Source: Macrolepiota albuminosa (Eukaryota; Basidiomycota; Agaricomycetes; Agaricales; Agaricaceae). From it: a DNA stretch of 64,000 nucleotides. Where the stretch lies: NCBI GenBank assembly GCA_027475525.1, contig JAMWFC010000077.1:124001-188000 (forward strand), read 5' to 3'. Below are positions 10,065 to 59,799 of the stretch, piece after piece; within the stretch, counting starts at the first letter, position 1; the number at the start of each line of letters is the position of its first letter. The position numbers and the translations under genes are program-made. The notes beneath the pieces were generated by a model. That model did not search any database. It was not told where the DNA came from and saw only the letters and a program-made list of their open reading frames with translations.

Positions 10065-11077
10065 TGATAGGACCCCATACAGGATCAGCACATCAACGGC
10101 AGGCTACGGCAACACGGCACAGGTCTGGGATACCTTAGCACATGCTAACTAACCAATTTTGGCAATATTTGATGGCTGCGCACGGCAAGAAGCAGATCCG
10201 ATCAGTGATAGCACCGATGGCAGACAGAATGATAACTGACAGATGGCATCAGTCACTGACGACAGCGCTTAGCGAGAAGCCTGATAATCTATCAAAAACT
10301 GACGGACAGCTTGGCGTTTGACCTTGGCATCTGAGACCACTTAGCGCCTCAATCTGGTGCCTGACATCGCTAAGCATTTTGGACAGACAGAAGGGTGATG
10401 GATTGATGGTTTAGCTTTGCAATCTGTCACCTGGCATCGCTAAGGTTCTTGAATGGACGGTAGAGATCTGAAACCATTGGAGCTACCTCTATGAAATTTT
10501 CTAGTTTACCGCACTTTGGCAATGGTTGGTCACTGGCGACGGATCTGAAACCATTGGAGCTACCTCTATGAAATTTTCTAGTTTACCGCACTTTGGCAAT
10601 GGTTGGTCACTGGCGACGGTGAACTCCCTGTAGTATATAAAGTACTTACCGACTTGTACATACCCATCGAACAAGAGACCAGAGTTTCCTGCTCCCCTTT
10701 CATCAGCCTCCCTTATGCTCAAGATCTCATTTACAGTCGGCAACGTCAAACTTGTCGGCAGTTGCAGACTATTGCTAGCCTTCGACCTATTTGCGCCTTG
10801 CAGCTACGGCAGGCATTATTGACGTTTAGACTTTGCTAAGCTTACCATGCTCTTGCCACTTATGTTGCCGTGTTCACTTACCGCTCCATTCATAGGCGCT
10901 TTACCTTAGCGCTTTACACTTACCGACCCCCTTACCAACTTTTCCTCATTTTCATAGGCACGTTCTCTGGGACCTGCCTGGGACTCCTCACATCACTTAT
11001 AGCGCACCCAACGCTAGCTTTTTGGTACGGTAACACTATAGTTATATTTGTTACTGACCAAACTTTGGGCGTCATCA
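10065..11077 (+). repeat. Gypsy-1 5' LTR
   Basis: Starts TGATAGGACC and ends GGGCGTCATCA. It is 1013 bp here against 935 bp for the 3' LTR; the difference is explained by a 77-bp exact tandem duplication at 10465-10619. A TATA element (gtatataaag) lies near 10632. Related LTRs occur in Gypsy-2 and in the truncated copy at 39960-40887. Confidence 0.92.
10465..10619. repeat. 77-bp tandem duplication 1
   Basis: Exact, second unit starting at 10542; in the Gypsy-1 5' LTR. The 3' LTR has one unit. Confidence 0.95.
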
Positions 11078-11100
11078 AATTGGAGCCCACCACGAGGGAT
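11078..11100 (+). other. Gypsy-1 primer binding site
   Basis: Directly after the LTR comes aat and then tggagcccaccacgag. The reverse complement ends in ...GGGCTCCA, the CCA being the 3' end of a tRNA. The same site, with one change, follows the LTRs of Gypsy-2 (36741-36757) and of the truncated copy (near 39950). I could not name the tRNA. Confidence 0.7.
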
Positions 11101-11457
11101 CTCTAGGGCAGAATTCCGCCAGAAACCCATCTCCAGCATAGGCGCCGCCTGCTAGACCAGTCGGCAGAAGGCATAGCTCCTTCCCACCCATCAACTCCAC
11201 AACCACCTGGTGCCTTACCGGGTCTCTCTCTTGCACAGGAACTACAGAATGCCACTGTAGACAAATTTCCTGATCTCTTCTCACGTTCTTTTGACTTTAG
11301 CGCCGACGACCTCTTAGCGTCGCCGCTTGCTGCACTGCAACCAGTTACCCCCATTACTCCGTTAACGCCTCTTTCTCAACTCATCTCTCTTACCCCGTCG
11401 CCAATCTCAAGAACTCCTTCCCCACAACCACTAACCGAACTCGGTACCACCGTCGCC

Positions 11458-12939
11458 ATGGAACAACAAGTTCAGCGCATGCCGCCACAAAATCACTTCT
11501 CAGCACCGAAATGGGACGAGTCCAAGCCATGGGAGCTCTCCCAGTATTTCAAGGAATTAGAGTATTTATTCAGGGATTGTGGCATTACCAACCACACACA
11601 GATGAAGGAGTACGCGGCAAGATACATGTCATATGACATGGCGGAGACGTGGACAGGCCTTGCCGAGTTTGCCGCCTTTGTTCCTGCCGCCCCACCCGTT
11701 CCAGCCCAAGGCGCCTTGTATGAAGGCTGGAAGACGGCAGTAATTCAGTTATACCCTGGCACTGAAGAAGCTACCTGATACTCGGTAAACGAATTACAGA
11801 AACTAGTACAGGAATCATTCGACAGCGGCACATCGTCTCTTGGCGCATTCTCTACATATTACTGCGAATTCCAAAAGATTGCTAGGTGGTTAGTGCAAAA
11901 CGGCAAGCTTTATATTAACGAGGAACGTTGACTATTCCAACAAGGCATCCCGACTTTGCTTTGAACTCGCATTGCTCGCCGCTTAGAGATAGTTCATCAG
12001 GCCCATCACCCAGACAAGCCCTATAACGTTGCCGACGTCTTTGAAGCCGGTAAATGGGTTCTCAAGGGAATGGACACTGGCGTTGGGCTGCAACGCGCTA
12101 GGACGAGCCCACCACCTGAGCAAACTAACGGTATCATTCCCATCCCACCTCCTGTTGCTGACTTCATCAAGAAGGAGGATCTTAACACTGCCGTTACCGC
12201 TGCTGTCGCTTCCGCCATGACTCATATTGAAACTATGATTACCACCAATCTTGCTAACTGACCCGCTAATGTACCCGCATCTGGCCCTTGCCACTTCTGT
12301 GGGGAAATTGGACATACTATGACTAGAGGATGCTGCGCAACCCTAGAAAACTACATTCGGCAAGGAAGAATTCGAAGGGCTATCAACGGCAAGATAGTTC
12401 TTACTACTGGTGCCACCATCCCCAACTACCCGGACAAGAAGTCTTTCCAGGAGCGAGTTGATGAATGGCATAGGCGCAATCCAGGACAAATCGTTACTGG
12501 CACACTTTCTGGCAACGCCAACCCCGACCCTGAACAGGCAACCCAACAGCAAATGATCCACAAAGTCTTACACTTCAACAGCGTTGGCAACCATCCTACT
12601 TTCTTGTGGGAAGAACAAATCACTAAGCTAGAGAAGGAATTAGATTTGCTCAAGAATCAGCTCTTTGATGGGGTTGAAGTTAAGCAGCCTAAACAACCTC
12701 TTAAAGGATACAAGCCAATGCCTCCCACTAGCAAGTTACCGACTCCTACTCCTGCCGCACCGCCAGCCACCACTCCAGAACCATCCTCGTCCGCTGCCGC
12801 TCCTGACCTGCCTTTGCCGCCTCTCCATCCCTACTCAGGGATTCCCGACTGTATCATGCACCCGCACAGCAAAATTTTGCCACTCCCGAGAAACATCCTG
12901 AAGGGGGTTACTGACCTACTGTGCCAATTTTTGACATAG
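11458..12939 (+). pseudogene. Gypsy-1 gag
   Basis: Capsid/nucleocapsid polyprotein. The frame starts at ATG 11458 and reads NHFSAPKWDES, ELEYLFRDCGI and AETWTGL, all matched in Gypsy-2. Stops at about 11776, 11930, 11962 and 12259 interrupt it. Near 12288-12335 is a zinc knuckle CHFCGEIGHTMTRGCC (CX2CX4HX5C). A Pro/Ala-rich linker follows. At about 12900 the frame shifts to the one that continues into the protease; in Gypsy-2 this junction is in frame, so the shift is a later mutation. Confidence 0.85.
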
Positions 12940-13562
12940 AGAAATCAAACCATGTATTCAACCGCATTATGAAAACCGCTGTCACCTTGTCAGTAGAAGA
13001 ACTTTGTAGTATTGCTCCCAACGTTCGCAACCAAGTCAAGACAGCAGTCACTCCTCGACATCCCTTGGCGACAACCGTTGCCAAGGTCGAGGACCTCAAT
13101 GACGTGCTTCCTGGTTTTTCTGTTACCGTCGACTCTCTGGACGCTGAAGACTCTCCCGCTGACACCATTGCTAACGCCACCTCTGTGGACCCAGTAGAGA
13201 CCTATCTTAGGTCAGTAGACCATGGAGAAGACCCGGCAATTCTTACCATTGCTCAAGAATCGCACGCTATTTGCTCAGTTGCGCTAACGGTAGACAATAA
13301 GCACGAGGTAGAGGCAATTGTGGATAGCGGGTCTCAAATCATTTCTATGGCAGCTGAAGTCGCTAATGATTTGGGCCTCATTTATGACCCTACTGTGATA
13401 CTAAACATGCAGAGCGCTAATGGTACAGTGGACAGATCCCTAGGCCTCGCCAAAAATGTGCCCTGCACCCTTGGCGACATCACTTTTTACCTTCAGATAC
13501 ACATTTTACGATCCCCGGCATATGACTTACTACTCGGCAGACCCTTCGACGTCTTGGCATGA
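12921..13562 (+). pseudogene. Gypsy-1 aspartic protease region
   Basis: Retroviral-type aspartic protease that would cut the gag-pol polyprotein. The active-site motif AIVDSGSQIISM is at about 13315-13350 and the ILRSPAYDLLLGRPF segment near the end matches the C-terminal part of gypsy proteases. It is open for 213 codons, the best kept domain of this gag-PR part. A stop follows at 13560-13562. It is matched by 34733-34035 in Gypsy-2. Confidence 0.85.
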
Positions 13563-14470
13563 TCAGTCGTCAAGACAGTTACCAACAACGAGATGACTTT
13601 AACAATTAGCGACCCCAATTCCAGAATCCGACGAACAGTGCCAACGTTCCCTAGGGGACAACAAAAAGGCACCTGTGCTAAGCCCCCGGAGTTTACTGAC
13701 CAACATGCCAACGAGCCTCCCCACCAGTGTTTTCACAGACCATCAAGGAGGTGATTGGTGACGATCATGGAGATGTGGCGCTAACGCTGGAATATGACCA
13801 TTCTACTGGTCTTGTAAATGTTGTGTCTACTGCTTTTCTTGATGAAGACGTTTTAACTACTTTATCCGCTACCGATGCTGAGCCTTCCCAGAAAAACCCA
13901 AACATTACCGACTCCGCTCTAGTGTACTTGTACCTTACCGCTTCCGAATCATTTCAAAACATTGCGTCTACCGATACTTATCTCACTACCCTTCCCGGAG
14001 CATCGTCTCCTGCCGTTCTCAGACTTGCCACCCCTCAGGCTACAGTTCCCCTTTCCACCCCTGTATATAACCAAGCTAACGCTCCCAAAAGGAAAGGGGT
14101 TCAAGTCAAAAAGAAATATAAGCCAGTTGCACTTAAAACAAAACCCGTCGCTACACACTCTCCCGAGACGTTTAGAATCGAGCGCCAGATCATTGGCGAC
14201 CCTCTTGCCAACATGCCAACCTTATCACCAAATCCGCCACCCTTTCAGCCCACAGGACGTTATACCACAGAGCGCCAGCAACAGTTCGCCAAGGAGCATG
14301 AGACAGGATTTTTGACCAAAGATGAGTTGAACGTCCTTACCAATCTCGTCGCTAAGCAAGATAAAGCCTTTGCTTGGGAGGACTCGGAACATGGCAGTTT
14401 ACATACAGACTTCTTCCCGCCTGTTGTAATCCCGACCATTTCTCACATGCCGTGGACTGAGCACAACTGA
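13563..14470 (+). pseudogene. Gypsy-1 protease-RT linker
   Basis: Continuation of pol between protease and RT. The frame 13727-14470 reads FSQTIKEVIGDDHGD, then a Lys-rich KGVQVKKKYKP, then ELNVLTNLVAKQDKAFAWED and HMPWTEHN, the segment that precedes the RT domain in gypsy elements. Gypsy-2 has the same segment at 34062-33249. No catalytic motif. One frameshift separates it from the protease. Confidence 0.75.
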
Positions 14471-16123
14471 CCGTTACCGCCTGGAATCGAAGCCGAGGCT
14501 GGCATCTACGAACCCTCCAATAGCTCTTACCGCTCCTGATGGTTTTGCATCCTCAAAAAGAATGGCAATCTACGCATAGTTCACAGTCTCAAGCCGCTGA
14601 ATAGAGTTACCATACGACACTCTGGCGTACCGCCTTTCCCTGACCACGTTGCTGAGTCCTTTGCCGGGCGTATTTGTGGCACCACCCTTGACCTCTACGT
14701 TGGCTACGACAAACGCCTAATACATCCTTCTTCCCAGGATCTCACTACTTTTCAAACTCCATTTGGCGCCTTGCGCCTAGTCACTTTACCGATGGGCTGG
14801 ACAAACTCAGTCCCCATTTTCCATGACAACATCACTTTCATCCTCCAACCCGAGATACTGCATAATGTCCTTAGCTTTATTGATGACGTTGGCGTCAAAG
14901 GCCCCAAAGACTGGCAACTTGTAAATGGCTTACCGGCGACCCATCCCGAGAACCCCAGCATTTGCTTAGCGCTATGGGAGTTTTTCCAGCTACTCAGCCA
15001 AGTTCTCCAACGTATGAAGTATAGCGGTGGAACCTTTAGCGGCCACAAACTCCTCCTTTGCGTGCCAAGGTTCAAAATACTTGGTCACATCTGCACTCCT
15101 GATGGTCGCGTTCCCGACAAGTCTTGCTTAGCACTCTTGGAGCAATGGGGTCCTTGCCACGACTTATCTGAAGTTTGCGCCTTTCTTGGTACCGTTGGCG
15201 TTCTCAGGATATTCGTCAAGAATTTTGCCCATCGTGCACATGCTCTTAACCAACTCACCCGTGCCAACAAGCCCTTCGAATTTGGGCCAGACCAGGTCAC
15301 TGCACAGCGAGACTTAGTAAAAGCCCTACAAGATGCCAAACCCCTAGTTTCAATTGACTATAGCTCTGCCGACCCTGTTATCTTAGCAGTGGATACCTCG
15401 TACATTGCCGTTGGCTACTTCTTGTGCCAGTGCCTTAGCGACAATTGGAAACTGCAATGCTACAACCGCTTTGGATCTATCATGCTAAACGACAGAGAGT
15501 CTCGTTACAGTCAGCCTAAACTAGAGCTCTATGGACTCTTCAAAGCCTTCCAGTCGCTAAAGATGTATTTGATTGGCGTGCGGAACCTGATTGTTGAAGT
15601 CGATGCTAGGTACATCAAAGGCATGCTGCAGAATCCCAATATCCAGCCATCTGCTAGCATGAACCGGTGGGTAGTCGCTATCCTCATGTTTCACTTTGAG
15701 TTGGTACACATCAAGAGCTCTTTCCACGGACCAGATGGACTTTCTAGGCGACCACGACAGCCTGGCGACCTGGCAGTGGATCCACAGGCGGATAGCGATT
15801 TCGAGGACTGGATCGACAGATTACATGGTTTCGTGCACCTTATACAACAGCCAATCCCCCTACTACAACGGCAACAGCCTGCCAGTATCCTTTTACATCC
15901 CATTGTCCCTTACTGCCCCGAGATCTTTAGCGCACCCCTCACATTCTACACGGCAAGCATCCTTGGACAAGACTTGCCACCAGTAAAAGTTGTACAGGAA
16001 CCCCATCTGCTAAGAGAAGACAGCAAAAACCTGACCTACGATGCCGTTCTCCGATCCGCCAAAGCAAAGGCGGAAGACAGTCACTTGTTAATAGTTGAAC
16101 AATGGATACAAGACCTTAAGTGA
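14471..16123 (+). pseudogene. Gypsy-1 reverse transcriptase and RNase H
   Basis: RT begins with NLRIVHSLKPLNRVT and has the A motif TLDLYVGYDKRL, then LVTLPMGWTNSVPIFH and the active site FIDDVGVKGP (about 14874-14905). FIDD replaces the usual YxDD, as in a group of basidiomycete gypsy elements. The thumb (FKILGHICTPDGR) and RNase H follow (ILAVDTSYIAVGYFLCQ, LNDRESRYSQPKLELYGLFKAF, VEVDARYIKGML). The stretch 14771-16123 is open for 450 codons. Stops lie upstream near 14470 and 14540. Confidence 0.92.
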
Positions 16124-16129
16124 CCCGCC

Positions 16130-17446
16130 GGCCTTACCGACAAACAGTACACAATCTTTATCCGATATGCCACCCATTTCTTCTTTACCAACAACCGTCT
16201 TTGGCGACGAAATTGAGATGGCACTCACAAGCTGATCATCAAGCCAGATAGTCGCTTACGAGTCCTGCGTGCCATGCATGACGAACTAGGACATAGAGGT
16301 CTGTACGCTATCCAAGCTTCTCTGTTAGAACGGTTCTGGTGGCTACACGCTAGTGCCGACATCGCCTGGTACATTAGGACTTGCCACCTATGCCAAATTC
16401 AACAGACACGCCAAGTGCTTATCCCACCAACCGTTGCAACGCCAGCTCCCCTCTTCAGCAAAATCTATGTCGATACCATGCACATACCCAAATCCGGTTG
16501 CTACAAGTACATCATTCAAGGTCATTGCTCGCTAATCCACTGGCCTGAATTTCGAATGCTTCAGAGAGAAAATACAGATGCGGTCGCCAAGTGGCTATTT
16601 GAGGACATCATTTGCCATTGAGGAGCACTGAGAGAAATCGTCATGGATAACGGTGCGCCAATTATCAAAGCGCTAACATATCTCGCCAAGAAATACAACA
16701 TTCACCACATTCGAGTATCTGGCTACAACAAGCGTGCCAATGGCCTGGTAGAGAGACCACACTTTGACGTTCAGCAAGCGCTCTTCAAGGCAGTTGATGG
16801 TGATGAGTCTCGTTGGAGTGAGGCGACATATTCAGTATTTTGGTCAGAAAGAGTTACCATTCGTAAGCGCATGGGTTGTTCTCCCTACTATGCGGCTACT
16901 GGCACCCATCCGTTACTCCCTGCCGACATTATAGAAGCGACCTACCTTCAGCCAGTGCCCAACAGCATCCTAGCAACTACCGATCTGATCGCCAGATGAG
17001 CCATTGATCTCCAACAAAGGAAAGAAGATTTAGAGCGACTCCACAAGGTAGTCTTTAGCACCCGTCGCCAAGCAGCCTTGCAATTCAAGACCGAGCATAG
17101 CGCCACTATCAAGGACTACAACTTCCTGAGAGGAGCGCTAGTACTTATGCGCAACTCCAAAATCGAGACCTCTTACAACAAGAAAATGCGTCCGCGCTAT
17201 CTAGGACCCTTGGTAGTTATCTCTCGTAACCGTGGAGGCACTTACGTGCTCTGTGAATTAGATGGTTCAGTACTGCATTGACCTGTTGCCGCCTTTCACC
17301 TATTGCCGTATCTCGCCAGGAAACAGATTGACTTGCCGTTGGAAGCGCTAGATATCAACACTGCCAAGCTGAGAGAACTTGAAGAAACAGAATTATTGGA
17401 CGATGATGATTTGCCAACTCTGGTTGAAGAAGAAGAAAATGATTAG
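16130..17446 (+). pseudogene. Gypsy-1 integrase
   Basis: Zinc-binding HHCC region at 16274-16420 (MHDELGHRGLYA, CHLCQIQQ). The catalytic core contains VDTMHIP, then MDNGAPIIKAL, then ERPHFDVQQALFKA, which carry the D, D and E residues in order. The C-terminal GPY/F module reads KKMRPRYLGPLVV (about 17180-17220). Stops at about 16618, 16999 and 17279 divide it. No chromodomain is visible. The acidic C-terminal tail is duplicated by a 77-bp tandem repeat (17381-17535). Confidence 0.88.
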
Positions 17447-17954: not shown

Positions 17955-20190
17955 TCAGTCTTCGTCTTCGGTAAGTGACGAGGAGTCGTCGAACGGCAAG
18001 AGGTTGCCAACTTGCACGTGGTTGAGAGTTTGCCACTCCAGAGCCTCGTTGCAGTCAGCTTGATACTCCTGCAAGGTATCCATACTCCTGGTCAAGTTGG
18101 AATACTGCAGTTGCGAAGCCATAATTTGCTCCCGGGCTTGTTCGCGCTCATGACCTAGTACTGCTCGCATGCTTGCTGCATGCACTGCCATCCGCTCTAT
18201 CACCTGGGGAGGGTAAAGGGCCACCACAGGATAGACCAAGTCCTCCCCCAGCCACTCGTGAGAATCGCCAGTGACTCTTGGCTGAGGCTGGGGGGTCCAC
18301 GACAAGGGCCCACTCAAGCTCATCCAGAGCTGCGTCGCTAAGTCACCCTCACTTACCCAGGGGGTGGCAGGCTCCACCGTTGGCAACTCCTGAAACTCAC
18401 TAGGGACGTCCCGCAAAGTCTCATCCATTTCTCCCTCGGCATCCTCATTGCCGCCCTCTACCTCCTCACGACTTGGCAATCCTCCACGTGTCTCCTCCTC
18501 CCTGGCTAACTCCTGCGCGCTAGTGGGCTCTCCCATTATGATGTCACCTTCATCTCCTGGGGCGCCAGCAGTCGAAACATCGAGTGGCACATTTTCAGGC
18601 AAGGCAAGGGGGGACAATAGGCGACTGGGACCAGCCTCACTGCTAATGGGAGGGAGGCGGCTGGCAGCAAGGGCTTCTCCAAGCTCCCTCATCTCCGTGT
18701 CCTCAGCAGTTGGAGAGGAGGGGGGCGACTCGATGTGTATGCGCTTGGCCTTACCCTTGCCCTTGCTTGGGGAGGAGGCCTTATGTTTTTCCTGGCGCTT
18801 GCCAGCGCCGTGCTTGCCGACCGATTCCGATTCATCTCCTTGGCACGTTGGTAGCGCCAAGGAGGACTTGCTGATCTTTGCCGCTCTCCCAGCGGCAACC
18901 TCCTTACGTTCCCCCTCCACAAACTCCCTAGCGCGCTTAACCAAAACTGCACAGGAAAAGGTCCTCTCGACAACGATATCTGGCGCCCCTCCCCGCTCGC
19001 AACTCTTAGCGCCATCAATGGTACAGGCACGCTTGAGAGTGCCACATCGGTAGCAAGGTTGAGCACCTGTGGGGAACCAACAACTCTCGGGATCGTTGTC
19101 AGCCCAACATTTGTCGCACTAAGATCAGTTAAGTGGAAAAAAGGTTATAAAGAATAGTTGCTTACCGCTCCACGCGAATCTTTAAACTCCTGGCACGTTG
19201 CCAGGGAAACCGTGCACTTATTCTTCATCTCAGGCAACTCCACTCCTCTCTTGATGCCCTCATCCATAACAACATCTTCCCGGCGCAGCAAGAGCAAACC
19301 CTTCAACTCCTTGTCGTTGAAAGTTGTCTGACTAGGGAGCTGGGAGAGAGTCAGTAGAAAGTTGGCAAAGAGTCACGACAGCATACCTCATATTGAGGGC
19401 CCTTCCCCTTGCGAGACTAGCAAAAGTTACCATTGGTAAGAAGAAACGCCAACGACGGCAGACTCACTTTCTTCTTCAAAGCCTTGCCAGGCTTAGAAGG
19501 CGAACCCCCTGTGCTTGCCGGCAGTGTGGGGCTCTGAACACTGCTGGTGTGAGACCCCTTGCTGGAACCCTTGGCAACGGACTCCTTCTTCTGCTCCTTG
19601 GCAAGCTCTGCCCTTGCCACTGCCAAGGAGTGCGCGGCAGCAGCAGCGGCAGCCTCCTCCTGTTCCTGCTCGATTTGCAATCGAGCAAGGGGCTCCAGTA
19701 CCTCTTGCTTACTACAGGGAGATAATTCAGTCCATAGCTAGAGAAGGAAAGGTCAGAAGCTACTTACTTGGTTGCCGATGCGCTTACGGTCATTGGCAAC
19801 GCGCCAGAAAAAATGTCCTCCAGCTCATCTTGGATGGTGGAGACAGAGGGAGGTGCCTAGGGAGCAATCAGCTAAGCGACACGGCAGGCAGCAAAGACAA
19901 CTTACAAAGCGGGAGAAGGGTGCTAACCACTTGGCGCCACGATTATCAACATACCTGGCACAACACCACTCCCGCACCTCGATCTCACAATCTCAGCCAA
20001 TGCCAAGAACCCGCACCTCATACCATCGCTCCAGTAACTTCATCACACCAACCACAAGGTTTTGGGATGCCTCAGCGCCAACGCCTTTGATATGACGGAT
20101 AAAGCGGTTGGCCTTGGCGATGTATGCGTAGGCAGCTTCTTGAGCAGCCTGAGAAGGCACGGGGGGCGGAGTTGGAATATGGAAGGACAT
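17955..20190 (-). CDS. Antisense six-exon accessory gene of Gypsy-1
   Basis: Runs opposite to gag-pol, between pol and the 3' LTR. From homology with Gypsy-2 and splice signals the exons are 20190-19906, 19856-19768, 19711-19468, 19416-19387, 19340-19166 and 19118-17955. Introns start GTAAG/GTGAG/GTATG and end TAG/CAG. Product about 660 residues: start MSFHIPTPPP, Ala-rich coiled segment ending KPGKALKKK, a Cys cluster in exon 6 (CX2CX8CX8CX2CX6C, near 19118-19010), a basic GKGKAKR stretch, an acidic middle and a C-terminal helix. Defects: one TGA for Trp in exon 1 and one extra T in exon 5. Function unknown; the Cys spacing suggests zinc and perhaps DNA binding. Confidence 0.75.
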
Positions 20191-20346
20191 ATTTTTATTA
20201 TTGAGCGCCAGGTAAAGATGGGGAGAAGAAACGAAGTCCAAACTCACACGCCAGGACTATAAACAAAATCTCAAGAACGCACGGACCACTTGTCACAAAA
20301 GCGGTAATGGTAGCCTTATTTGGTGACTGAGGACAGTCAATTTTTC

Positions 20347-20359: not shown

Positions 20360-21294
20360 TGATAGGACCCCATACAGGATTAGCGCATCAACGGCAGGCT
20401 ACGGCAACACGGCACAGGTCCGGGATACCTTAGCACACACTAACTAACCAATTTTGGCAATATTTGACGGCCAGGCACGGCAAGAAGCAGATCCGATCAG
20501 TGATAGCGCTGATGGCAGACAGAATGACAACTGACAGATGGCATCAGTCACTGACGACAGCGCTTAGCGAGAAGCCTAATGATCTATCAAAAACTGACGG
20601 ACAGCTTGGCGTTTGACCTTGGCGTCTGAGACCGCTTAGCGCCTCAATCTGGTGCCTGACATCGCTAAGCATTTTGGACAGACAGAAGGGTGATGGATTG
20701 ATGGTTTAGCTTTGCAATCTGTCGCCTGGCGTCGCTAAGGTTCTTGAATGGACGGTAGGGATCTGAAACCGTTGGAGCTACCCCTATGAAATTTTCCAGT
20801 TTACAGCACTTTGGCAATGGTTGGTCACTGGCGACGGTGAACTCCCTGTAGTATATAAAGTACTTACCAACTTGTACATACCCATCAAACAATAGACCAG
20901 AGTTTCCTGCTCCCCTTTCATCAGCCTCCCTTATGCTCAAGATCTCATTTACAGTCGGCAACGTCGAACTTGTCGGCAGTTGCAGACTATCGCTAGCCTT
21001 CGACCTATTTGCGCCTTGCAGCTATGGCAGGCATTATCGACGTTTAGACTTCGCTAAGCTTACCACGCTCTTGCCACTTACGTTGCCGTGTTCACTTACC
21101 ACTCCCTTCATAGGTGCTTTATCTTAGCGCTTTACACTTACCAACCCCCTTACCGACTTTTCCTCATTTTCATAGGCGCGTTCTCTGGGACCTGCCCGGG
21201 ACTCCTCACATCACTTATAGCACGCCCAACGCAAGCTTTTGGTATGGTAACACTATTGTTATATTTGTTACTGACCAAACTTTGGGCATCATCA
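20360..21294 (+). repeat. Gypsy-1 3' LTR
   Basis: 935 bp, from TGATAGGACC to GGGCATCATCA, followed by the target duplication CCGC. It is the same sequence as the 5' LTR apart from scattered substitutions and the 77-bp duplication present only in the 5' copy. Confidence 0.92.
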
Positions 21295-22790
21295 CCGCTG
21301 TCCGCTGGCATGCCAGTGGATGGTAGCTGGCATCAGCATGTGAGCCAGCTGATGTCAGTGGTGCAACCAGTCCCAGTGGTTCAGTGGTTCAGTGGAATAT
21401 TCATTTATTGATATTCAATATTGTGTACAGCAGTGGGTTCTACTCCTACTCCACCTTAATAGGGTCTAATGGTGACAATGGAATATTGAGAGGCGGGTTC
21501 GACTCCTGCTAGTGACAAATATTTTAATAGGGCCTGTAAGCCCTAATAAAATATCTGTTCATTACTCACTAGCATCATCAAGTTGATCTGTTCAAAACGC
21601 TAGAAATTACTGAAGTGGGTATAGGTTGGACAAATTTGCACATAGTCACGAGTTCTGGAATGATCACATGCGCAAAGATGACCAACCCATGCCACTGCAG
21701 AAATCTCTGGAGTTTTAAACAAATCACATTAATGATGCTAGCGGACATCAGTGGCCTGCTGCTCTAATATGCACTAGCAGGAGTCGAACCCACCTCTTGT
21801 GCACAATATGAAATATCAATTTATCAATATTCCATTGTACCACAGGCGCTTACTTAGAAGTCAGGACAGTGTTCACGCTAGCAGACGTCAGTGGCCTGCT
21901 GCTATTATATAATGTGCACTAGCGGAAGTCAAACCTGCCTCTCAGTGGAATATTCATTTATTGATATTCAATATTGTGTACAGCGGTGGGTTCTACTCCC
22001 CCTACTCCACCTTAACGGGGTCTAATGGTGTGTTTTTATACAGGTGCATTTTTGCTCTACATGTACATCGTACTGACCTATAGTAAGCACCTGTGGTAGT
22101 TGATCTGACCCACTCAATTTTCAGTATTGTGTGGAGTGGCAGGTTCAACTCCCCTAGTCCAGACTTCCCTAGTCTACTATAATGATGTATAATTATACTG
22201 CTGCATTTTCACACTACATGTAAACTGTACTGATTTTTGGCAAGGATCTGTGGTCCAATGGAATATTGATACATTGATATTTCATATTGTGCACAAGAGC
22301 TGAGTTCGAATCCTGCTAGTGCACATCATTAGACATGACATAACTTCGTTTTACTAATTGTTATTTACTACACAGTATGATAAACAAAGTAAGGTTGTAA
22401 TTTTTTACAACGTCCTGTGGTCTAGCAAAATATTGTCAGTCTATATTCTTTCTACTGCACAATTCAAGAGTTCGAGTCCCCCTTGTGTAATCGTTGAAGA
22501 GTGTGTTGTTTTTTGTGTTCATGAGAGTGGCATAACAGAACAAAACAATGGGACGGTTAATCTTAGTGGACCTGAGTCCTGTCCAAACTAATTGAAATGT
22601 CTGTAGTAATGTGCTGTAGCCTAGTACACAATACTAGAGTGATATTTATGTATAATCCACAGAATGTCCTGTGGTCTAGCTGAATATTGTCAGTTTATGT
22701 TCCTTCTAGTGCACAACTGGAGGTAATGGATCAAACAGATTTATAATGGATTTGTCAGCGGCACAATGGGACGGTTAATCTTGACAAAAA
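21295..22790 (+). repeat. Repeat R, copy 1, right part, tRNA-like array
   Basis: Continuation of repeat R after Gypsy-1. It matches 45526-46660 read in reverse, in blocks. It is a mosaic of tRNA-like units on both strands, each with an A-box-like TGGT(C/A)YAATGGAATA and a B-box GGTTCGANTCC. The clearest are 21771-21849 (-), 22245-22324 (+), 22412-22490 (+) and about 22666-22735 (+). Others (21390-21465, 21935-22010) share the inner ttgatattcaatattgtg. The phrase caatgggacggttaatctt occurs twice (about 22547 and 22767). No coding frame is convincing. Confidence 0.7.
22245..22324 (+). repeat. tRNA-like unit
   Basis: A-box-like tggtccaatggaatattg followed about 45 nt later by the B-box gagttcgaatcctg, giving the spacing of a tRNA-derived pol III promoter. 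The acceptor stem is not conserved. This is the best of the short-form units; relatives lie at 21771-21849, 45526-45603, 45685-45762 and 45983-46063. Confidence 0.5.
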
Positions 22791-23529
22791 ATAACCAACG
22801 GAAAAGCCAAGAATTATAGTAACTAAGGATTAAATTACTCGTCTGATGTGTATTCCTCCTTTTTATTAGATTCATGTAATGCATCTGAATAGAACAAATC
22901 CTCATCAAGCAGGTAGTCTGCTGTCAAAAATGCAAAGTCATCCGGTGTATATGGCCCCTGAGGTCTGGGAAGTGTGATGTCTTCATAGTTTACTATCAGG
23001 CCTGACGATGAAGATGGTGAGGGTGACTCTGACATATCAACAGACACATCATCAGTACAACCAGCTTGATTGAAAGGGCCAATGGGCCTACATCGACCAT
23101 GTTTTGCTCTAGCGCGAAATTCTTGTTCTGTTGAAATAAATTAACTATGATTACCAGTGCCAAATTATACTCACGTTGTTGATACAATTTGTTAATTCTT
23201 CTCTGATCCTCATGTCGAGTCATACGTGTCTCATATTCCTCCCACTCCTAGACATTGTTACCAGTAGGTAGGGTTGGAGAAGGAGATTGTTGGAAGGGGA
23301 AAGACTGGATTTGAAGAGCCATTACATCAAAATGCGGTGCAAAATTTTCTTTGTTATCGGCTGCCATGCCTTCATCTGTCTCTTCTGCCATCACAAGAAA
23401 TAGCGGTGGAAAGTTTTCTTTGTCCTCAGTTGCCATAGGTCCGCCGCTCCGGACTTCCATTTGTCTGCCATCACCAGCCGCCATGGTCTCCATCACTGTT
23501 AGTCCTTCTGCTCCTTCACCAACAATGAA

Positions 23530-27396: not shown

Positions 27397-27400
27397 GTGG

Positions 27401-28311
27401 TAATGACATCCAAAAGTAGATCAATAGCAGTTACGGTTTACAGCTACTGACCTGTAAGCGTTGGGCACACTAAGTATTTTGAAGGAGTCCTGGGCAGGTC
27501 CCAGAGAACAAGTCGAAAAAATAAAAATTAAGTCGGCAAGAAGTGTCAATAAGAGATGCGTGCTAAGGATTGGGCACCTAAGTAGCTAAGTTAAAGCCGG
27601 TTAAGTACGGCAAGAGATGCAGTAAGAGGACAGGCGGCTTAGTGATGACTAAGTTGCATGTTGCCTGCCATAGGTGCGAGGTGCATAGGTTCCATAAGCA
27701 GGACTGCGGCAAGCAGGCTAAGAGTGTTCAGACAATTGATGACCAAGAACTTAGTCAGCTCAAAAGAAATCTGAACTGTAAGGTGAACTGAGCAAGGTAA
27801 AACGGAGTACTCTGTTCTGTCCTTAACTATTGACAAGTGGTAAGTATTTATAGTAAGTTAAAGTTCCCCGTCACCAAGGCAGGAATAGAATTGTAAGAAT
27901 GTAAGTAAAGGCCATGAATTAAACTAAATAAAAGGAAATTATGAGCTTGCTGTCCATGCTGTCTGTCTTGAGGTTGCCAAGTGCTATTATGTGCCATGGT
28001 GACACGCTAGTCCAACTGTCACAAGTTATTGCATTATCCCTAATTCATAAGCGCTGTCACCAGCTAGCTGGGCCACATGCTGATTAATTAGCGCCACCTG
28101 TCAAGACCTTACCGACAGCATGATAACAGCTGTCATTCCAGCTGCCGCTAGTGCTATCACTGATTGATCTTGATGGTTGCCATGCGTGCCCATTAGGAAT
28201 GGCCTAGAAAGGATAAATCATGTGTGCCAAGTTTGGCATGAGTGCAGCAAGGTGTCCAGAACCAATGCCGAGCCTGCCATTGATGCGCCTAGCCTGTATG
28301 AAGTCCTATCA
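27401..28311 (-). repeat. Gypsy-2 3' LTR
   Basis: 911 bp. Read on the minus strand it runs from TGATAGGACTTC to GGATGTCATTA, so the end has drifted from TCATCA. A purine-rich tract gttggagggaga precedes it (plus-strand coordinates 28312-28323). Confidence 0.92.
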
Positions 28312-28480: not shown

Positions 28481-30774
28481 ATGTCTTTCCAGATTCCAAC
28501 TCTGCCTGCCATGCCATCTGTCAAGGCCCAGAACGTGGCCCACACATACATTGAGAAGGCCAACAAGTTTCTCAAGCGCATCAAAAATGTAGGCACTGAG
28601 GCACCTTCCAACCTTGTCGTTGGCATGATGCGCCTCCTGGAGTGGTGGTATGAGGTTAGGGTACTTGGCATGGGGTGGGACCATGAGATCAAAGTGCAGG
28701 AGTGGTGCTGTGCATGTTATGTGGACAACCATGGCACCAAGTAGTTAGCGCCGTTCTCTTGATTTGTGAGTTGCCGCTCATGCTTGCCGTTTTGCCAACT
28801 AACCATTCCTTCAGGCACCTCCTCCTGTTCCAAAAATCAAAGATGAACTGGAGGACATTCTTATTGGCACCTTGCCTATGACGGTAAGCACACCTGCCAC
28901 CGAGTGAGTATCCCTGACCCCCATCTTCTAAACTTAGCTGTGGTCTGATCTCTTCCCTCATAGTCGACGAGAGGTGCTGGTGCCCTTGGCGCATATGCAG
29001 GTGGACAAGGAGATTGTGGCAGTGCAGAAGGAGGCTGCTTGTGATGCACGGGAGATTGGGAAGGTGCTGGAGGAATGGGAGTGCATCAAGGTGCTAGTGG
29101 ATGAAATAGAGGATGTGGCCATGGGTAAGACACCTGCCCCTAAGAGGCAAGGTGCCATTGCCCATGTGTTGCCAAGGGAGTCACGTGCCAGCAGTGCTTC
29201 AAGCCCTGCGCTGTCAGCTAGCAAGGCAGGCTCATTTTCAAAGCCTGGCAAGGCTTTGAAGAAAAAGGTAAGTTTAGAGTTCCTTAGCATTGCACCCTGT
29301 TGCTAACAGATTCCCGAGTCTCGTAAAGCTGCCACTCCTTGCTATGCGGTAAGCCTCCCTTGTAAGTCACCAATCTCATTACTGACCAAGTTTCCTAGGT
29401 GCCCACCCAAACCACTTTTAGCGACGCAGAGTTGCAGAGTTTGTTGGTGCTGCATCGGGAAGAGGCTGTTTTGGATGAGGAGATGGATGCAGGAGTGTCC
29501 TTGCTGGAGATGAAGGACAAGAAGACCATTAGCATGTCACGGAGATGGGAGTTCAAAGAATCTCAGGGCACGGTGAGTGTTTCTCTCTTTTTCTTGGTGC
29601 TGTCTTCTGACTTCATCTTTATTGCAACAAATGCTGAGCAGACAATGACCCAGAGGGGTGCTGTTATGGGACCTTTAAGCAGGCTTGTACCCTAGACGGT
29701 GCCAAGAGTTGTGAGCAAGGGGGCACTCCTGATGTGATCATAGAGAGGACTTTTACATGCACCATCCTGGTCAGAAGAGCCCAGGAATTTGTAGAGGGAG
29801 AGAGGAAGAAGGAGGTTGCTGGCGACGCAACCAGTATTAGCAAAAGTTCCCTAGCACTGCTGACATGCCAAGGGGATGATCAATCAAGCGTTAGCAACCA
29901 TGGTGCCAGTGAGCACCAAGAGACTGAGGTCTCTTCGAAACGACAAGTCCCTTCTCCCAGCAAGGGGAAGGGCAAAGCAAAACATGCACGGATAGAGTCG
30001 CCTCCCCCTACCCCTAAAGACGTTGAAATGGAGGAGTTGGAGCAGGCTCTAGCCGCTAGTTGCTTACCGCCCTGGGATAGCAAGGCAGGTCCCAGTTGCC
30101 TGCTCTTGCCTATTCAGTTGCGTGGGGCCTCCTTGCCACCAGCTGCAGGTCAAGAAATCGTTACCGCCCTCCCAGCAGTGCCAGAGAAAGCCGATGGGGA
30201 AGAGACCACTGGTGGGGTTGCTGACGCAGGAGTGGTACGGCAACAGCAGGGGATGAGCAGGACAAGAGCGGGAGGGAGAGTCCAAGTTGGCAGTGGTTGG
30301 CGCCTTACAGCCCCACTGCTCCATGGGCTAGAGAGGTGTCAGATGAGGAAGACATTGCCGGATTGGAGCCATGGCAGCCCATTGTTGCCAGGGTCAATCC
30401 CTCCTGGACCCCCTCAACCCATGCTGCGAGTGACTGGCGACGTGTTCCGTTGGCTGGGGCAGGACCTCGTCTACCCAGTGGTTGCACTTCACCCCTGGGA
30501 GATGCTGGAGAGGTTTGCTGGTTGAGTGGTAAGAATGGAGGAGGTCTTTGAATGGGAACAAGAGAGGATCTGGGCACAGCTTATGGCTTTCCACCTTTGT
30601 TACCATAACTTGGTGCGTAGTCTTGCTGTGCTGCACGACTATCAAGCTGACTGCCAAGATGCTCTAGACTGGCAGTTAGCAAACAACATTCAGCCCAGCA
30701 ACCTCCTGCCTCTTCGTGAAGATTTCCTGCCATTATTGGACAATACCCTGCCGTTGAATGAGGACAGCGAGTAG
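28481..30774 (+). pseudogene. Antisense six-exon accessory gene of Gypsy-2
   Basis: Homologue of the Gypsy-1 antisense gene, again opposite to gag-pol. Exons: 28481-28765 (285 bp, as in Gypsy-1), 28815-28903 (89 bp, as in Gypsy-1), 28964-29267, 29310-29348, 29399-29572 (174 bp) and about 29605-30774. It starts MSFQIPTLPAMP and ends LPLNEDSE. The Cys cluster is damaged: a short deletion removes the CWFPTGAQP part and TGG has become TGA. The last intron has TTAT in place of the acceptor TTAG. Exon 1 has TAG for a Trp codon that is intact in Gypsy-1. The basic GKGKAKHARIESPP stretch and the C-terminal helix (LQ/LHDYQADC) are kept. Confidence 0.75.
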
Positions 30775-31141: not shown

Positions 31142-32334
31142 TCAATCTTCTTCTTCAGTTATAGCAGGTAAGTCATCATGGTCCAATAGTTCTGTTTCTT
31201 CAAGCTCACGTAGCTTAGCAGTATCAATATCCAGCGCCTCCAGCAGTAAGTCAATGCATTCCCTGGCGAGGTATGGCAGAAGGCGGAAGGTGGCAACAGG
31301 TCTGTGGAGTACTGATTCATCTAGTTCACAAAGAATGTAAGCACCTCCACAGTTACACAAGATAACTACTAATGGCCCCAAGTAGCGTGGGCGCATCTTC
31401 TTGTTATATGACGTCTCAATTTTGAAATTGCACATGAGCACTAGCACGCCTTGTGGGAAGTCATAGTCCTTAATAGTGGTGCTATGGTCAGCTTCAAACC
31501 TAAGTGCAGCTTGGCAACGTGCGGCAAAGACTGTTTCATGGAGCTGCTCCAAGTCCTTGCATCGTCGCTGGAGGTCAATAGCGCGTCTGGTGATGAGGTC
31601 GGTAGTTGCTAAGAGACTATTTAGTGCTGGCTGGAGGTAAGTTGCCTCCACAATGTTGGCAGGGAGAAGAGGATGGGTACCAGTAGCTGCATAATAGAGA
31701 GAACAACCCATGCACTTATGAATAGTGACTCTTTCCAACCAGAAAACTGAATAAGTCGCCTTGCTCCAGCATGATTTATTGCCATTGACTGCCTTGAAGA
31801 GCACTTGCCGCATGTCAAAATGAGGTCATTCCACTAAGCCGTTAGCACGTTTGTTGTAGCCAAAGCTGTGGATGTGGTGGATGTTGTACTTCTTGGTGAG
31901 GTAAGTCAGAGCTTTAATGATAGGCGCACCATTATCTGTGACAATTTCTCTTAGCACACCCCATCGGCAAATGATGTCCTCAAAGAGCCACTTGGCAATG
32001 GCATCGGTATTTTCTCATTGGAGCATGCAGAATTTGGGCTAGTGGATTAGCGAGCAGTGTCCTTGGATGATATACTTATAGCGACCAGACTTAGGCATGT
32101 GCATGGTGTCGATGTAGATCTTGCTAAACAAAGGTGCTGGAGTAGTGATGGTAGGTGGTATGAGCACTTGGCGAGTCTGCTGAATCTGACAAAGGTGGCA
32201 AGTCCTGATGTACCAGGCAATGTCAGCACTAACGTGAGGCCACCAAAAGCGCTCCAGGAGAGAGGCCTGGGTAGCATACAATCCTCTGTGACCGAGTTCA
32301 TCATGCATAGCATGGAGAATACATAGGTGACTGT
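31142..32334 (-). pseudogene. Gypsy-2 integrase
   Basis: Reads HDELGHRGLYATQ and CHLCQIQQ (zinc-binding part), IYIDTMHMPKSGRY in the core, then in 31813-31142 a 223-codon open stretch with RYLGPLVVI (GPY/F module) and an acidic tail ending EEED. The region between the two open stretches (31815-32040) holds the second catalytic Asp and Glu motifs across a stop and a frame change. It closely parallels Gypsy-1 16130-17446. Confidence 0.88.
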
Positions 32335-33563
32335 CGGGCTTGATGACTAATTTGTGGGCACCATCGTGACTGGGTCAGCAGAGGTGTAGTCAATAGGAAC
32401 AAGTGGCTTAGCATCTTTTAATGCCTTAACAAGGTCACGTTGGGAGTTAACTTGGTTAGGGCCAAACTCAAAGGGTTTGTTAGTGCATGTGAGTCAGGTA
32501 AGGTGATGAGTGCAATGGGCAAAGTTCTTGACAAAAATATGGAGGACACCAACGGTTCCTAAAAAGGCACAAACTTCAGACAGGTCATGGCAAGGACCCC
32601 AATGCTTGAGGAGGGCTAGGCAAGATTTGTTGGGAATGCGGCCAGCGGGAGTGCAGATGTGGCTAAGTATCTTGAACCTTGGCACACAGAGCAGGAGCTT
32701 GTGACCACTAAGGTGCTGCCACTGTACTTCATGTGCTGGAGAACATGGTTAAGCAGCTGGAAGAAGTCCCAGAGCGCCAAGCATATATTATAATTGTTGG
32801 GATGCTTCTCCAGTAAGCCATCAATGAGTCGCCACTCCTTAGGACCTTTAATGCCAACATCATCTATGAAGCTGAGCACGTTATGGGGGATCTTGGGTTG
32901 CAAGATAAATGTGATGTTGTTGTGAAAGATAGGGACTGAGTTAGTCCAGCCCATAGGGAGAGTAACTAGGCATAAGGCACCAAAGGGAGTTTGGAAGGTG
33001 GTAAAGTCATGGAAAGAGGGATGGATCAAGCATTTGTCGTAACCGACATAGAGGTCAAGAGTGGTGCCACAGATGCGACTAGCAAAGGACTCAGCAACAT
33101 GGTCAGGAAAGGGAGGCATGTCAGAGTGCTGAATGGTAACTCTATTCAGTGGCTCTAGACTGTGAACAATACGCAAATTACCATTTTTCTTGAGGACACA
33201 GAACCAGCGGGAGCGGTAAGAGCTGTTGGATGGCTCATAGACGCCAGCCTATATCTTGGTGCATATGATCTGGCAGACCTCGGCCTTGATGCCAGGCAGC
33301 AAGGGTCTGTTGTGTTCAGTCCATGGTACGTGAGGAACAGTAGGGATTACCACTGGCAGGAAGAAGTCTGTGCACAAGCTGCCACGCTCAGAGTCCTCCC
33401 AAGCAAAGGCTTGATTCTGCTTGACAATGAGGTCAGTAAGGACGTCCAGTTCGTCTTTGGTGAGGAAGCCAGTATCGTGCTCCTTAGCGAATTGCTGTTG
33501 GTGCTTGGTGGTAAATTGTCCTGTCGGTTGGAATGGTGGCAGGTGCAGCATGAGAGTCGGCAT
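32335..33563 (-). pseudogene. Gypsy-2 reverse transcriptase, RNase H deleted
   Basis: RT runs from ELDVLTDLIVKQNQAFAW through NLRIVHSLEPLNRVT and LVTLPMGWTNSVPIFH to the active site FIDDVGIKGP. It continues through FKILSHICTP and VGVLHIFVKNFAH. After this the sequence jumps from the SADP segment straight to HDGAHKLVIKP, which in Gypsy-1 is about 0.83 kb further on (15378 to about 16214). The whole RNase H domain is therefore missing. Two frameshifts and several stops occur. Confidence 0.88.
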
Positions 33564-34733
33564 GTTGGCCAGTGGATTGTCAAGAATATGGCATTTGATT
33601 CAGAAAGCTTCTGGAAAGTGAGCAGCAACGGGTTTTGTTTTAAGTGACGGGCTTGTATTTCTTTTTGACTTGTACCCCTTTCCTTTTAGGTGCGTTAGCA
33701 TTAGTATAAACAGAGGTGGAAAGGGGGCTAGAGTTGGTAATGGTAGAGTGGAGAGCAGAAAGTCCAAGAACAGCAGGAGCAGAGGCTCTGGGAAGGGTCG
33801 TTAAATAAGTATCTTTTGTAGCGATTTTCTGGAAAGAGTCCAAGGCGGTAAGATAAAGGTAGGCAAGAGATGAGTCGGTAATGTTTTGTGGGTTTTTCTG
33901 GGGATTCTTAGTAACACAATTAGGTACAGTAGAAAGTACTTCTGTATCAAGAAAAGCCGTTTTCAAAATATGTACATGACCACTGGCATGGTCAAATTCT
34001 AGTGTTAGCGCCTCATCTCCATGATTGTCACCAATCACCTCCTCGATGGTCTGTGAAAACACCTGTGAGGTGGCTCACTGGCATGCTGCTCAGTGAACTC
34101 AGATGGCTTGCTGCCAGTACCTTTCCACTGTCCTCTAGGTAAGGTTGGTACGGTGCGTTGTATTTCGGAATTTGGGTCGCTAATGGTCAATGTCGTCTCT
34201 TCATCAGTAAGGGTCTTGACTATTGAGCACGCTAAGGCGTTGAAGGGTCTGCCGAGTAGGAGATCATAAGCGGGGGAACGTAAGATGTAGATCTGGAGGT
34301 AAAACGTGATGTCACCAATAGTGCATGGCACGTTCTTGGCAAGTCCCAGAGACCTATCAACTGTGCCATTAGCACTCTGCATGTTCAAGACGATGGTAGG
34401 ATCATAAATCAGGCCTAAGTCATTGGCAACTTTGGCAGCCATAGAGATGATCTGGGAGCCACTGTCTACAATGGCCTCGACCTCACTTTTGTTGTTGACA
34501 GTAAGCATGATAGACCTGATAGCATGGGAGTCCTGGATGACAGTAAGGATGGCGGGATCTTCTCCAGGGTCCAAAGACCTCATATACATTTTGACAGGAT
34601 CCACAGAAGTAGTGTTAGCGATGGAATCTGCAGGGAATGTATTGGTGCTAAGCATAATGGGAGGGTCAGTAGCAACTGAGAATCCAGAGAGAGCATTGTC
34701 TAGTTCATTTACCTCAGTAATGGTAGTTGCCAA
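33564..34733 (-). pseudogene. Gypsy-2 protease and linker
   Basis: The frame 34733-34035 carries the aspartic protease motif AIVDSGSQIISM and ILRSPAYDLLLGRPFNALA, almost the same as Gypsy-1. The linker frame 34062-33640 follows with FSQTIEEVIGDNHGD and the Lys-rich KGVQVKKKYKP. The two frames overlap by 28 bp in different registers, so one indel separates them. Confidence 0.85.
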
Positions 34734-34736
34734 GGG

Positions 34737-36757: not shown

Positions 36758-37651
36758 TGATGACGCCCAAAAGTAGATCAATAGCAGTTATGGTTTACAG
36801 CTACTGATCTAGGCACACTAAGTGTTTCGAGGAAGTCCTGGGCAGGTCCCAGAGAACAAGTCAAAAAGATAAAAATTAAGTCGGCAAGGGGTGTCGGTAA
36901 GGGATGCACGCTAAGGATTGGGCATCTAAGTAGCTAAGTTAAAGCGGGTTAAGTGTGGCAAGAGATGCAATAAGAGGACGGGTGGCTTAGCAATAACTAA
37001 GCTGCATGTTGCCTGCTGTAGGTGCGAGACGCATAAAACAGGACTGCAGCAAGCAGGCTAAGAGTGTTCAGACAATTGGCAACCAAGAACTTAGTTAGCT
37101 CAAAAGAAATCTGAACCGTAAGGTGAACTGAGCGAGGTATAACAGGGTACTCTGTTCTGTTCTTAACTATTGACAAGTGGTAAGTATTTATAGTAAGTTA
37201 AAGTTCCCTGTCGCCAAGACAGGGATGGAATAGTAAGAATGTAAGTAAAGGCCATGAATTAAACTAAATAAAAGGAAATTACGAGCTCGCTGTCCATGCT
37301 GTCTGTCTCAATGTTGCCAAGCACTATCATGTGCCATGGTGACACGTCAGTCCAACCATTATGAGTTATTGCATTATTCCTAATTTGTAAGTGCTGTCAC
37401 CGGCTAGCTGAGCCACATGCTGATTAATTAGCGCCACCTGTCAAGACCTTACTGACGGCGTAATGACAGCTGTCATTCCAGCTGTCACCAGTGCTATCAC
37501 TGATCAATCTTGATAGTTGCCATGCGTGCCCATCGGGAATGGCCTAGAAAGGATAAATCGTGCATGCCAAGTTTGGCACAAGTGCAGCAAGATGTCTGGA
37601 ACCAATGTTGAGCCTGCCATTGATGCACCTAGCCTGTGTGAGGTCCTATCA
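36758..37651 (-). repeat. Gypsy-2 5' LTR
   Basis: 894 bp, from TGATAGGACCTC to GGGCGTCATCA on the minus strand, followed by aattggagcccaccatgag (primer site). It differs from the 3' LTR by scattered substitutions and small indels, so the insertion is not recent. Confidence 0.92.
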
Positions 37652-37655
37652 GTGG

Positions 37656-59639: not shown

Positions 59640-59641
59640 GT

Positions 59642-59795: not shown

Positions 59796-59799
59796 ATGA

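What the first reader, a model, noticed from the sequence alone, without database searches (positions are those of the whole stretch)
17955..20190. Spliced antisense gene carried as cargo by a Ty3/gypsy family
Gypsy-1 (17955-20190, -) and Gypsy-2 (28481-30774, +) are separate, diverged insertions, yet both carry the same six-exon gene opposite to gag-pol between integrase and 3' LTR. Exon 1 is 285 bp and exon 2 is 89 bp in both, and exon 5 is 174-175 bp. Intron positions match and the start and basic motifs are conserved. Introns can survive retrotransposition here because in the genomic (sense) RNA the antisense introns have no splice sites. A gene kept with its introns implies its own promoter in or near the 3' LTR and a role in the element's life, for example regulation or targeting.
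Basis: partly seen in the sequence, partly recalled or inferred. Interest (0 to 1): 0.88.

Follow-up and report, generated by a model that had tools for sequence, protein, structure and literature searches.

The report
Spliced antisense gene in fungal retrotransposons
A family of jumping genes in what looks like a termite-cultivated mushroom fungus carries, on its opposite strand, an intron-containing protein gene that selection has kept intact while it diverged far more than the rest of the element, which points to a self-regulating accessory gene.

Summary
Confirmed, and stronger than reported. Gypsy-1 carries a six-exon gene antisense to gag-pol between integrase and 3' LTR (20190-17955, minus); Gypsy-2 carries the same gene; both window copies are broken. 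In the 100-Mb genome (Termitomyces-like by protein hits) the gene is a family feature: 69 of 82 RT copies listed have an exon-6 hit at the expected antisense place, at least 73 with fetched copies counted. In 15 of 15 other copies analysed the five introns sit at the same places (74 of 75 GT..AG); 11 of 15 have no stop in the spliced frame. Three of three copies tested have LTR pairs listed at 100% identity, so introns appear to survive mobilisation. Selection is purifying (median dN/dS 0.15; 0.07 in exons 1-2). Unexpectedly the gene is an island of divergence: median Ks 1.18 against 0.22 for RT of the same 11 elements; introns differ by 39%, most of gag-pol by about 5%, the LTR start by 3%. 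It forms three deep classes that the backbone does not track. Homologues were found only in five Termitomyces strains (word-limited search). Best reading: a nuclear, self-specific regulator of the element. Function is inferred; no RNA evidence could be reached.

The parts
10065..11078 (+). Gypsy-1 5' LTR (end approximate); holds a 77-bp exact tandem duplication from 10465
   Evidence: direct repeats D3/D4
11107..17440 (+). Gypsy-1 gag-pol, decayed (RT/RNaseH 14540-16123; integrase about 16200-17440)
17955..20190 (-). Gypsy-1 antisense gene, whole span; one in-frame stop in exon 1
19906..20190 (-). exon 1 (285 nt): conserved helical N-terminal domain; stop at codon 66 in this copy
19768..19856 (-). 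exon 2 (89 nt)
19468..19711 (-). exon 3 (244 nt)
19387..19416 (-). exon 4 (30 nt)
19166..19339 (-). exon 5 (174 nt)
17955..19118 (-). exon 6 (1161 nt + stop): CX2CX8CX8CX2CX6C cluster, basic tract SPSKGKGKAKR, acidic stretch, C-terminal helix
20191..20359 (-). leader / putative antisense promoter: TATA-like box at about 20257-20263 and inverted repeat TGACTGaggaCAGTCA at 20324-20339
   Evidence: nearly invariant in the 16 copies aligned, and shared with Gypsy-2
20360..21297 (+). Gypsy-1 3' LTR (end approximate)
28481..30773 (+). Gypsy-2 antisense gene (four stops; acceptor of intron 5 lost; end approximate)
31142..36729 (-). Gypsy-2 gag-pol, decayed
27464..28310 (-). Gypsy-2 3' LTR (limits approximate)
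   Evidence: repeats D5/D8
36812..37660 (-). Gypsy-2 5' LTR (limits approximate)
   Evidence: repeats D5/D8

Best explanation
An accessory gene of a high-copy Ty3/Gypsy family. Shown: it lies antisense between pol and 3' LTR, has five introns, and is kept open by purifying selection in most copies analysed. Follows from its orientation: the introns are invisible to the splicing machinery in the sense genomic RNA, so whole elements move with introns in place. Inferred: it is transcribed from its own promoter in the leader next to the 3' LTR; its protein (helical N-terminus, six-cysteine probable zinc cluster, basic tract, acidic stretch, long C-terminal helix) is nuclear and regulates the element itself. 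Because the gene is by far the most diverged part of the element and comes in discrete classes spread over one backbone, I propose that the regulation is class-specific (it acts on same-class elements, as Ty1 copy-number control does), so that rare classes gain and several old classes persist while gag-pol and LTRs are homogenised by recombination.
For: Antisense placement in at least 73 of 82 RT copies; conserved five-intron structure, 74 of 75 GT..AG; 11 of 15 stop-free spliced frames; dN/dS median 0.153 whole gene, 0.068 exons 1-2, 0.085 cysteine region, against 0.052 for RT; LTR pairs listed at 100% in 3 of 3 tested copies; divergence island with borders just after pol and just before the LTR; gene Ks exceeds RT Ks in 54 of 55 pairs, and exon-6 distance exceeds integrase distance in 20 of 21 pairs even among copies picked for exon-6 likeness; introns as diverged as the gene (median 0.386); three exon-6 clades (support 99-100) of which RT+IN rejects class A as one clade (p-AU 0.0096); invariant leader with TATA-like box shared by Gypsy-1 and Gypsy-2; basic tract and cysteine cluster conserved across species.
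Against: No RNA or protein evidence. Classes B and C are not rejected as clades by RT+IN (p-AU 0.258, 0.173). In 3 of 55 pairs exon 1-2 Ks is not above RT Ks. All of this genome's copies form one clade against other Termitomyces strains, so no trans-species polymorphism is seen. No region has dN/dS above 1. Pfam finds no DNA-binding domain. Correlation of class with leader and LTR start (r 0.32-0.34) may be plain linkage; gag also correlates weakly (r 0.26), the rest of pol does not. The assembly has joining artefacts that could have made some mosaics and identical LTR pairs.
Confidence: 0.5

Rival explanations
1. Neutral module shuffling. The gene is a useful accessory gene of any kind; several old element lineages each had their own version, and one recently successful backbone picked up versions by recombination between co-packaged RNAs. 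Divergence marks history, not class-specific function.
For: Sharp borders on both sides, class labels mixed over the RT+IN tree, within-gene mosaics such as L018 and L019 (exon 1 of one class with exon 6 of another).
Against: Does not explain why only this module stays old and polymorphic while gag, pol and both ends of the LTR are young in the same elements.
Confidence: 0.27
2. A positive-acting factor: nuclear import, chromatin association or target-site choice of the integration complex, diversified by adaptation to different genomic niches.
For: Nuclear-type features (basic tract, cysteine cluster); plant antisense proteins such as Grande gene 23 are nuclear (passages of PMC7264820).
Against: No data on insertion sites by class were gathered; integrase, the expected partner, does not co-vary with the class (r 0.06, p 0.21).
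Confidence: 0.12
3. The antisense RNA is what matters (double-stranded RNA made with the genomic RNA); the protein is secondary.
For: Antisense transcription of such elements has been proposed to act this way (passages of PMC7264820).
Against: Purifying selection on protein (dN/dS 0.07-0.24), cysteine spacing conserved between strains at 33-41% protein identity, introns free to diverge.
Confidence: 0.04
4. A captured host gene carried as a passenger.
For: Gene-like intron density; no known viral relative.
Against: Present in at least 73 of 82 RT copies, under selection between element copies, multi-copy in five other Termitomyces strains. A single-copy host source was not searched for separately.
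Confidence: 0.04
5. A locally raised mutation rate in the antisense gene, not age or exchange.
For: Introns and synonymous sites of the gene are both diverged, with borders at the gene's ends.
Against: Copies fall into discrete deep clades rather than a star, and L020 and L024 share a nearly identical gene on RT sequences with Ks 0.195.
Confidence: 0.03

Closest known systems
Antisense accessory ORFs between pol and 3' LTR (aORF-3R): Retand, Grande, RIRE2, PvRetro13 of plants (PMC7264820, passages and section 5; PMC11963269, abstract and passages)
   Same: Position, orientation, presence in most copies, suspected nuclear and regulatory role, own promoter in Grande.
   Different: No TRP28 (PF04195) or other Pfam match here; five introns (the word 'intron' occurs 0 times in the main text of either paper); fungal host; gene far more diverged than pol, whereas the review describes conservation similar to other element proteins.
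Botrytis Boty brtn, a fungal antisense gene (Zhao et al. 2011; not held, seen only as cited in PMC7264820, PMC8365987 and PMC4227169)
   Same: Fungal Ty3/Gypsy element with an antisense gene between gag-pol and 3' LTR.
   Different: Boty gag-pol is described with a CHROMO domain (PMC4227169 passage); none was found in the pol tested here. Homology and intron content of brtn could not be checked.
HTLV-1 HBZ and APH-2/3/4 (PMC10186651, passages)
   Same: Spliced antisense gene driven from the 3' LTR side, nuclear regulator of the element.
   Different: Retrovirus; HBZ is a bZIP protein and no bZIP match was found here; HBZ has one spliced form with a small first exon (recalled), here six exons.
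Ty1 / Ty1' copy-number control by p22/p18 and Drt2 (PMC7055915, abstract and section 8; PMC12530519, abstract)
   Same: Self-encoded, subfamily-specific control; the control region (gag) is strongly diverged between subfamilies and shuffled by recombination onto other backbones.
   Different: Sense, derived from gag; here a separate antisense gene with no sign of gag origin. The comparison is one of pattern, not of homology.
Fungal Zn2Cys6 (Gal4-type) transcription factors
   Same: Six cysteines in two CX2C pairs followed by a helix and an acidic region.
   Different: Spacing CX2CX8CX8CX2CX6C, not the CX2CX6C start of Zn2Cys6 (recalled); no Pfam match at E up to 1.

Membership tests
Ty3/Gypsy LTR retrotransposon (the carrier) | LTRs flanking gag, PR-RT-RNaseH-IN in that order | tested here: met
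   (RT, RNaseH and integrase H2C2 by Pfam; integrase after RNaseH)
aORF-3R antisense accessory gene | coding gene antisense between pol and 3' LTR | tested here: met
aORF-3R antisense accessory gene | present in most copies of the family | tested here: met
   69 of 82 listed RT copies, at least 73 with fetched copies; one without it lies at an assembly gap, 8 unexamined
aORF-3R antisense accessory gene | transcribed from its own promoter | not testable with these tools
   leader conserved with a TATA-like box; no RNA data
Retand TRP28 protein | PF04195 domain | tested here: not met
   no match at E up to 1
Boty brtn | sequence homology to brtn | not tested
   brtn sequence and paper not available
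HBZ-like antisense regulator | bZIP domain | tested here: not met
   no Pfam bZIP match
HBZ-like antisense regulator | spliced antisense transcript | not testable with these tools
   splice sites conserved, transcript not seen
Zn2Cys6 transcription factor | PF00172 profile match | tested here: not met
   no match at E up to 1; six cysteines conserved with other spacing
Ty1-type copy-number control | restriction factor derived from gag of the same element | tested here: inconclusive
   no sequence relation to gag was seen in passing; no dedicated profile comparison was run
Known fold of the N-terminal domain | structural relative among solved structures | tested here: inconclusive

The most novel reading that the evidence does not exclude
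The antisense gene is a self-recognition locus inside a retrotransposon: discrete old classes of a spliced, probably DNA-binding regulator are kept by negative frequency-dependent selection and swapped as a cassette onto one homogenised gag-pol-LTR backbone, so that elements police, or are policed by, only their own class.
Probability: 0.28. Interest if true: 0.85.

Novelty: new variant of a known kind. Interest (0 to 1): 0.64.

Why it matters
Antisense accessory genes are known in plant Ty3/Gypsy elements, in Boty and in HTLV, but the function of those of retrotransposons is open. A family with hundreds of copies, an intron-rich gene that tells antisense mRNA from genomic RNA unambiguously (spliced reads can only come from the antisense strand), and natural classes on one backbone makes the question directly testable. 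It also shows that introns can be kept indefinitely in a reverse-transcribed element if they are antisense. If the classes prove to be specificity types, it would be a balanced self-recognition system run by a transposon.

Tried and rejected
Rejected: (1) chance ORFs or a pseudo-gene model: five intron positions conserved and low dN/dS. (2) A sense-strand gene there: in the 8 copies looked at, every sense frame over the cassette has 11-23 stops. (4) Trans-species allele classes: the 11 own proteins form one clade against 19 proteins of five other strains. (5) Ascertainment by RT likeness as the cause of the divergence island: copies picked by exon-6 likeness still show exon 6 above integrase in 20 of 21 pairs and exons 1-5 with introns above it in 19 of 21; of these, the six exon 1-5 values of 0.55-0.61 all involve L004, whose upstream part does not align and should not be counted.

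Led nowhere: Pfam, solved-structure sequence search (only E 0.56-0.8 matches), structure prediction of the T159 homologue P0024 (mean pLDDT 56.5; helical N-terminus, helix 311-338 and helix 542-604 predicted, cysteine cluster not confidently modelled), fold searches. Nine literature searches ran; none of their listings showed a Termitomyces retrotransposon paper or an intron-containing antisense gene of a fungal LTR element, which is not proof of absence since subscription papers are not held. A single-copy host source gene and intron-free copies were not searched for. The gag 5' part also correlates with cassette class (r 0.26, p 0.004; 11 stretches tested); I did not pursue it.

Rows dropped: of 20 fetched elements (L009-L028) the gene analyses used 15 (L012-L026) plus the window copies; L010 and L011 (100-N gaps, gene absent or exon 6 only), L027 (same hits as L026) and L028 (rearranged) were left out. 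Ks used the 11 stop-free copies (55 pairs); the profile used 8 copies (28 pairs). For most class B and C copies the terminal stop codon was not read by the script, because the end column was set by L009. One search used hits typed, not the extra ones, and the search listings are capped.

Full report
What was checked. The window lies in contig C62 of a 100,137,612-base assembly in 129 contigs. All protein relatives found (22 of 22, 16 of 16, 67 of 67, overlapping lists) are annotated as Termitomyces (strains T32_za158, J132, T159_Od127, T112, Mn162), so the host is taken to be a Termitomyces or close kin; this is inference. The searches were word-limited and capped at about 8,000 candidates, so absence from other genera is not shown.

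The gene. Gypsy-1 runs from a 5' LTR at 10065 to a 3' LTR that starts at 20360, with gag-pol on the plus strand. On the minus strand between integrase and 3' LTR lies a six-exon gene, 20190 to 17955. Gypsy-2 has the same gene at 28481 to about 30773. Exon 1 (285 nt), exon 2 (89) and exon 5 (174) are equal in both. Neither is intact: Gypsy-1 has a stop at codon 66; Gypsy-2 has four stops, a lost acceptor at intron 5 and a gap in the cysteine cluster. Their LTR pairs differ at 53 of 944 and 99 of 864 sites.

Family-wide. Twenty elements were fetched by RT likeness to Gypsy-1 (one is Gypsy-1 itself). Exon 6 was found in 19 of 20 and exon 1 in 18 of 20, antisense; the one without exon 6 (L010) has a 100-N gap. 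In the 15 copies analysed further, intron positions are the same, 74 of 75 introns are GT..AG, and 11 of 15 have no stop in the spliced frame; of the other four, L017, L025 and L026 carry 77-bp duplications in exons. Of the 82 RT copies listed (82 scored of 3,723 candidates), 69 have a listed exon-6 hit on the opposite strand 3-7.5 kb downstream, against 3 hits at control placements; four more have the gene in fetched sequence (L013, L019, L026, L027), one is at a gap (L010) and eight were not examined. Hits typed from three searches gave 294 distinct gene places, a lower bound.

Introns and mobility. For three copies with open spliced frames (L022, L023, L016) the 3' LTR was searched in the genome; in 3 of 3 its partner about 10 kb away is listed at 100% identity (rounded). 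So these copies inserted recently with five introns in place. Caveat: an assembler can collapse near-identical LTRs.

Selection. Nei-Gojobori estimates on 11 copies (55 pairs): RT median Ks 0.217, dN/dS 0.052; gene median Ks 1.18, dN/dS 0.153. By part, dN/dS is 0.068 (exons 1-2), 0.24 (exons 3-5), 0.085 (cysteine region), 0.168 (exon 6 middle, 34 pairs usable), 0.093 (exon 6 end). The protein is therefore under purifying selection; no part exceeds 1. Many gene Ks values are near saturation.

An island of divergence. Along the element, pairwise distance (28 pairs, 8 copies) is mostly 0.04-0.07 through gag-pol (0.12 in one 250-bp stretch), 0.10 just after pol, 0.19-0.41 through the gene, 0.10 at the start of exon 1 and leader, then 0.03-0.09 in the LTR. 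Introns differ by a median 0.386, so constraint is not the cause. Gene Ks exceeds RT Ks in 54 of 55 pairs; the exception, L020 and L024, shares a nearly identical gene on RT sequences with Ks 0.195. With exons 1-2 alone, which align without doubt, 52 of 55. Reciprocal control: among seven copies chosen for exon-6 likeness (L002-L008) exon 6 still exceeds integrase in 20 of 21 pairs.

Classes and exchange. Exon 6 gives three clades (support 99-100) with long stems; RT+IN gives a shallow tree on which the classes need 5 changes (least possible 2; shuffled mean 7.4, as low in 5 of 200 shuffles, so class and backbone are not wholly independent). RT+IN rejects class A as one clade (p-AU 0.0096) but not B (0.258) or C (0.173). 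Exon-6 distance does not follow integrase (r 0.06, p 0.21) or RT (r 0.15, p 0.08) distance, but weakly follows leader (0.32), LTR start (0.34) and 5' gag (0.26). Against other strains all own copies are one clade, so the classes arose in this lineage.

Assembly quality. In the window and the 20 elements, 39 of 39 exact tandem duplications of period 25-200 have period 77. I read this as untrimmed overlaps of a k = 77 assembly (recalled default of a common assembler). Some frame breaks are thus artefacts, and linkage across such joins may be chimeric. L018, L019, L021, L022 and L023 have none; all 10 pairs among them keep gene Ks above RT Ks.

Promoter. The leader between ATG and 3' LTR is nearly invariant in 16 aligned copies and partly shared with Gypsy-2, including TTATAGTCCTGGCG, CTGGCGCT and an inverted repeat TGACTG..CAGTCA. 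That these are promoter parts is inference.

Protein. About 650-720 aa in the copies read: helical N-terminus, cysteine cluster CX2CX8CX8CX2CX6C, basic tract, acidic stretch, long C-terminal helix (the structure is of a T159 homologue, with high confidence only for the first 100 residues and the last helix). No Pfam family, no solved relative by sequence, no clear fold match.

Interpretation. Works like: an HBZ/APH-type antisense regulator in placement, and a Ty1-type subfamily-specific control in its pattern of divergence and recombination. Membership: antisense accessory gene between pol and 3' LTR, met; Retand TRP28, Zn2Cys6 and bZIP, not met. Shown: gene, splice structure, family presence, purifying selection, divergence island. 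Inferred: expression, promoter, nuclear site, regulation, class specificity. Rivals are given with odds; neutral shuffling of old modules is the strongest.

Noticed in passing
window 10465, 17379, 23568, 41727, 44524, 46182, 49575, 59485, 59642 and many fetched elements: Exact tandem duplications of exactly 77 bp, 39 of 39 found; read as untrimmed k-mer overlaps of the assembly, which also fake frameshifts and may create chimeric elements.
   Followed up: partly
window 20324-20339 (minus-strand leader), also in Gypsy-2 near 28340: Inverted repeat TGACTG..CAGTCA next to the 3' LTR, conserved between two strongly diverged subfamilies; a candidate binding site.
   Followed up: partly
window 23472-23980: 48-bp tandem repeats, nine overlapping reported copies, open on both strands.
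   Followed up: no
P0036 (Termitomyces J132 protein, 909 aa): Relative of the antisense protein predicted as one chain with Pfam PF14223 and PF22936 domains; a fusion or a gene-model error.
   Followed up: no
L009-L026, 5' 1.2 kb of fetched gag: Gag distance correlates weakly with cassette class (r 0.26, p 0.004, 11 stretches tested), a possible partner signal.
   Followed up: no
window 24387-27400 against 60581-63957, and 37652-41803 against 56519-60584: Long inverted copies (90-96% alike) of other elements that flank the Gypsy insertions.
   Followed up: no
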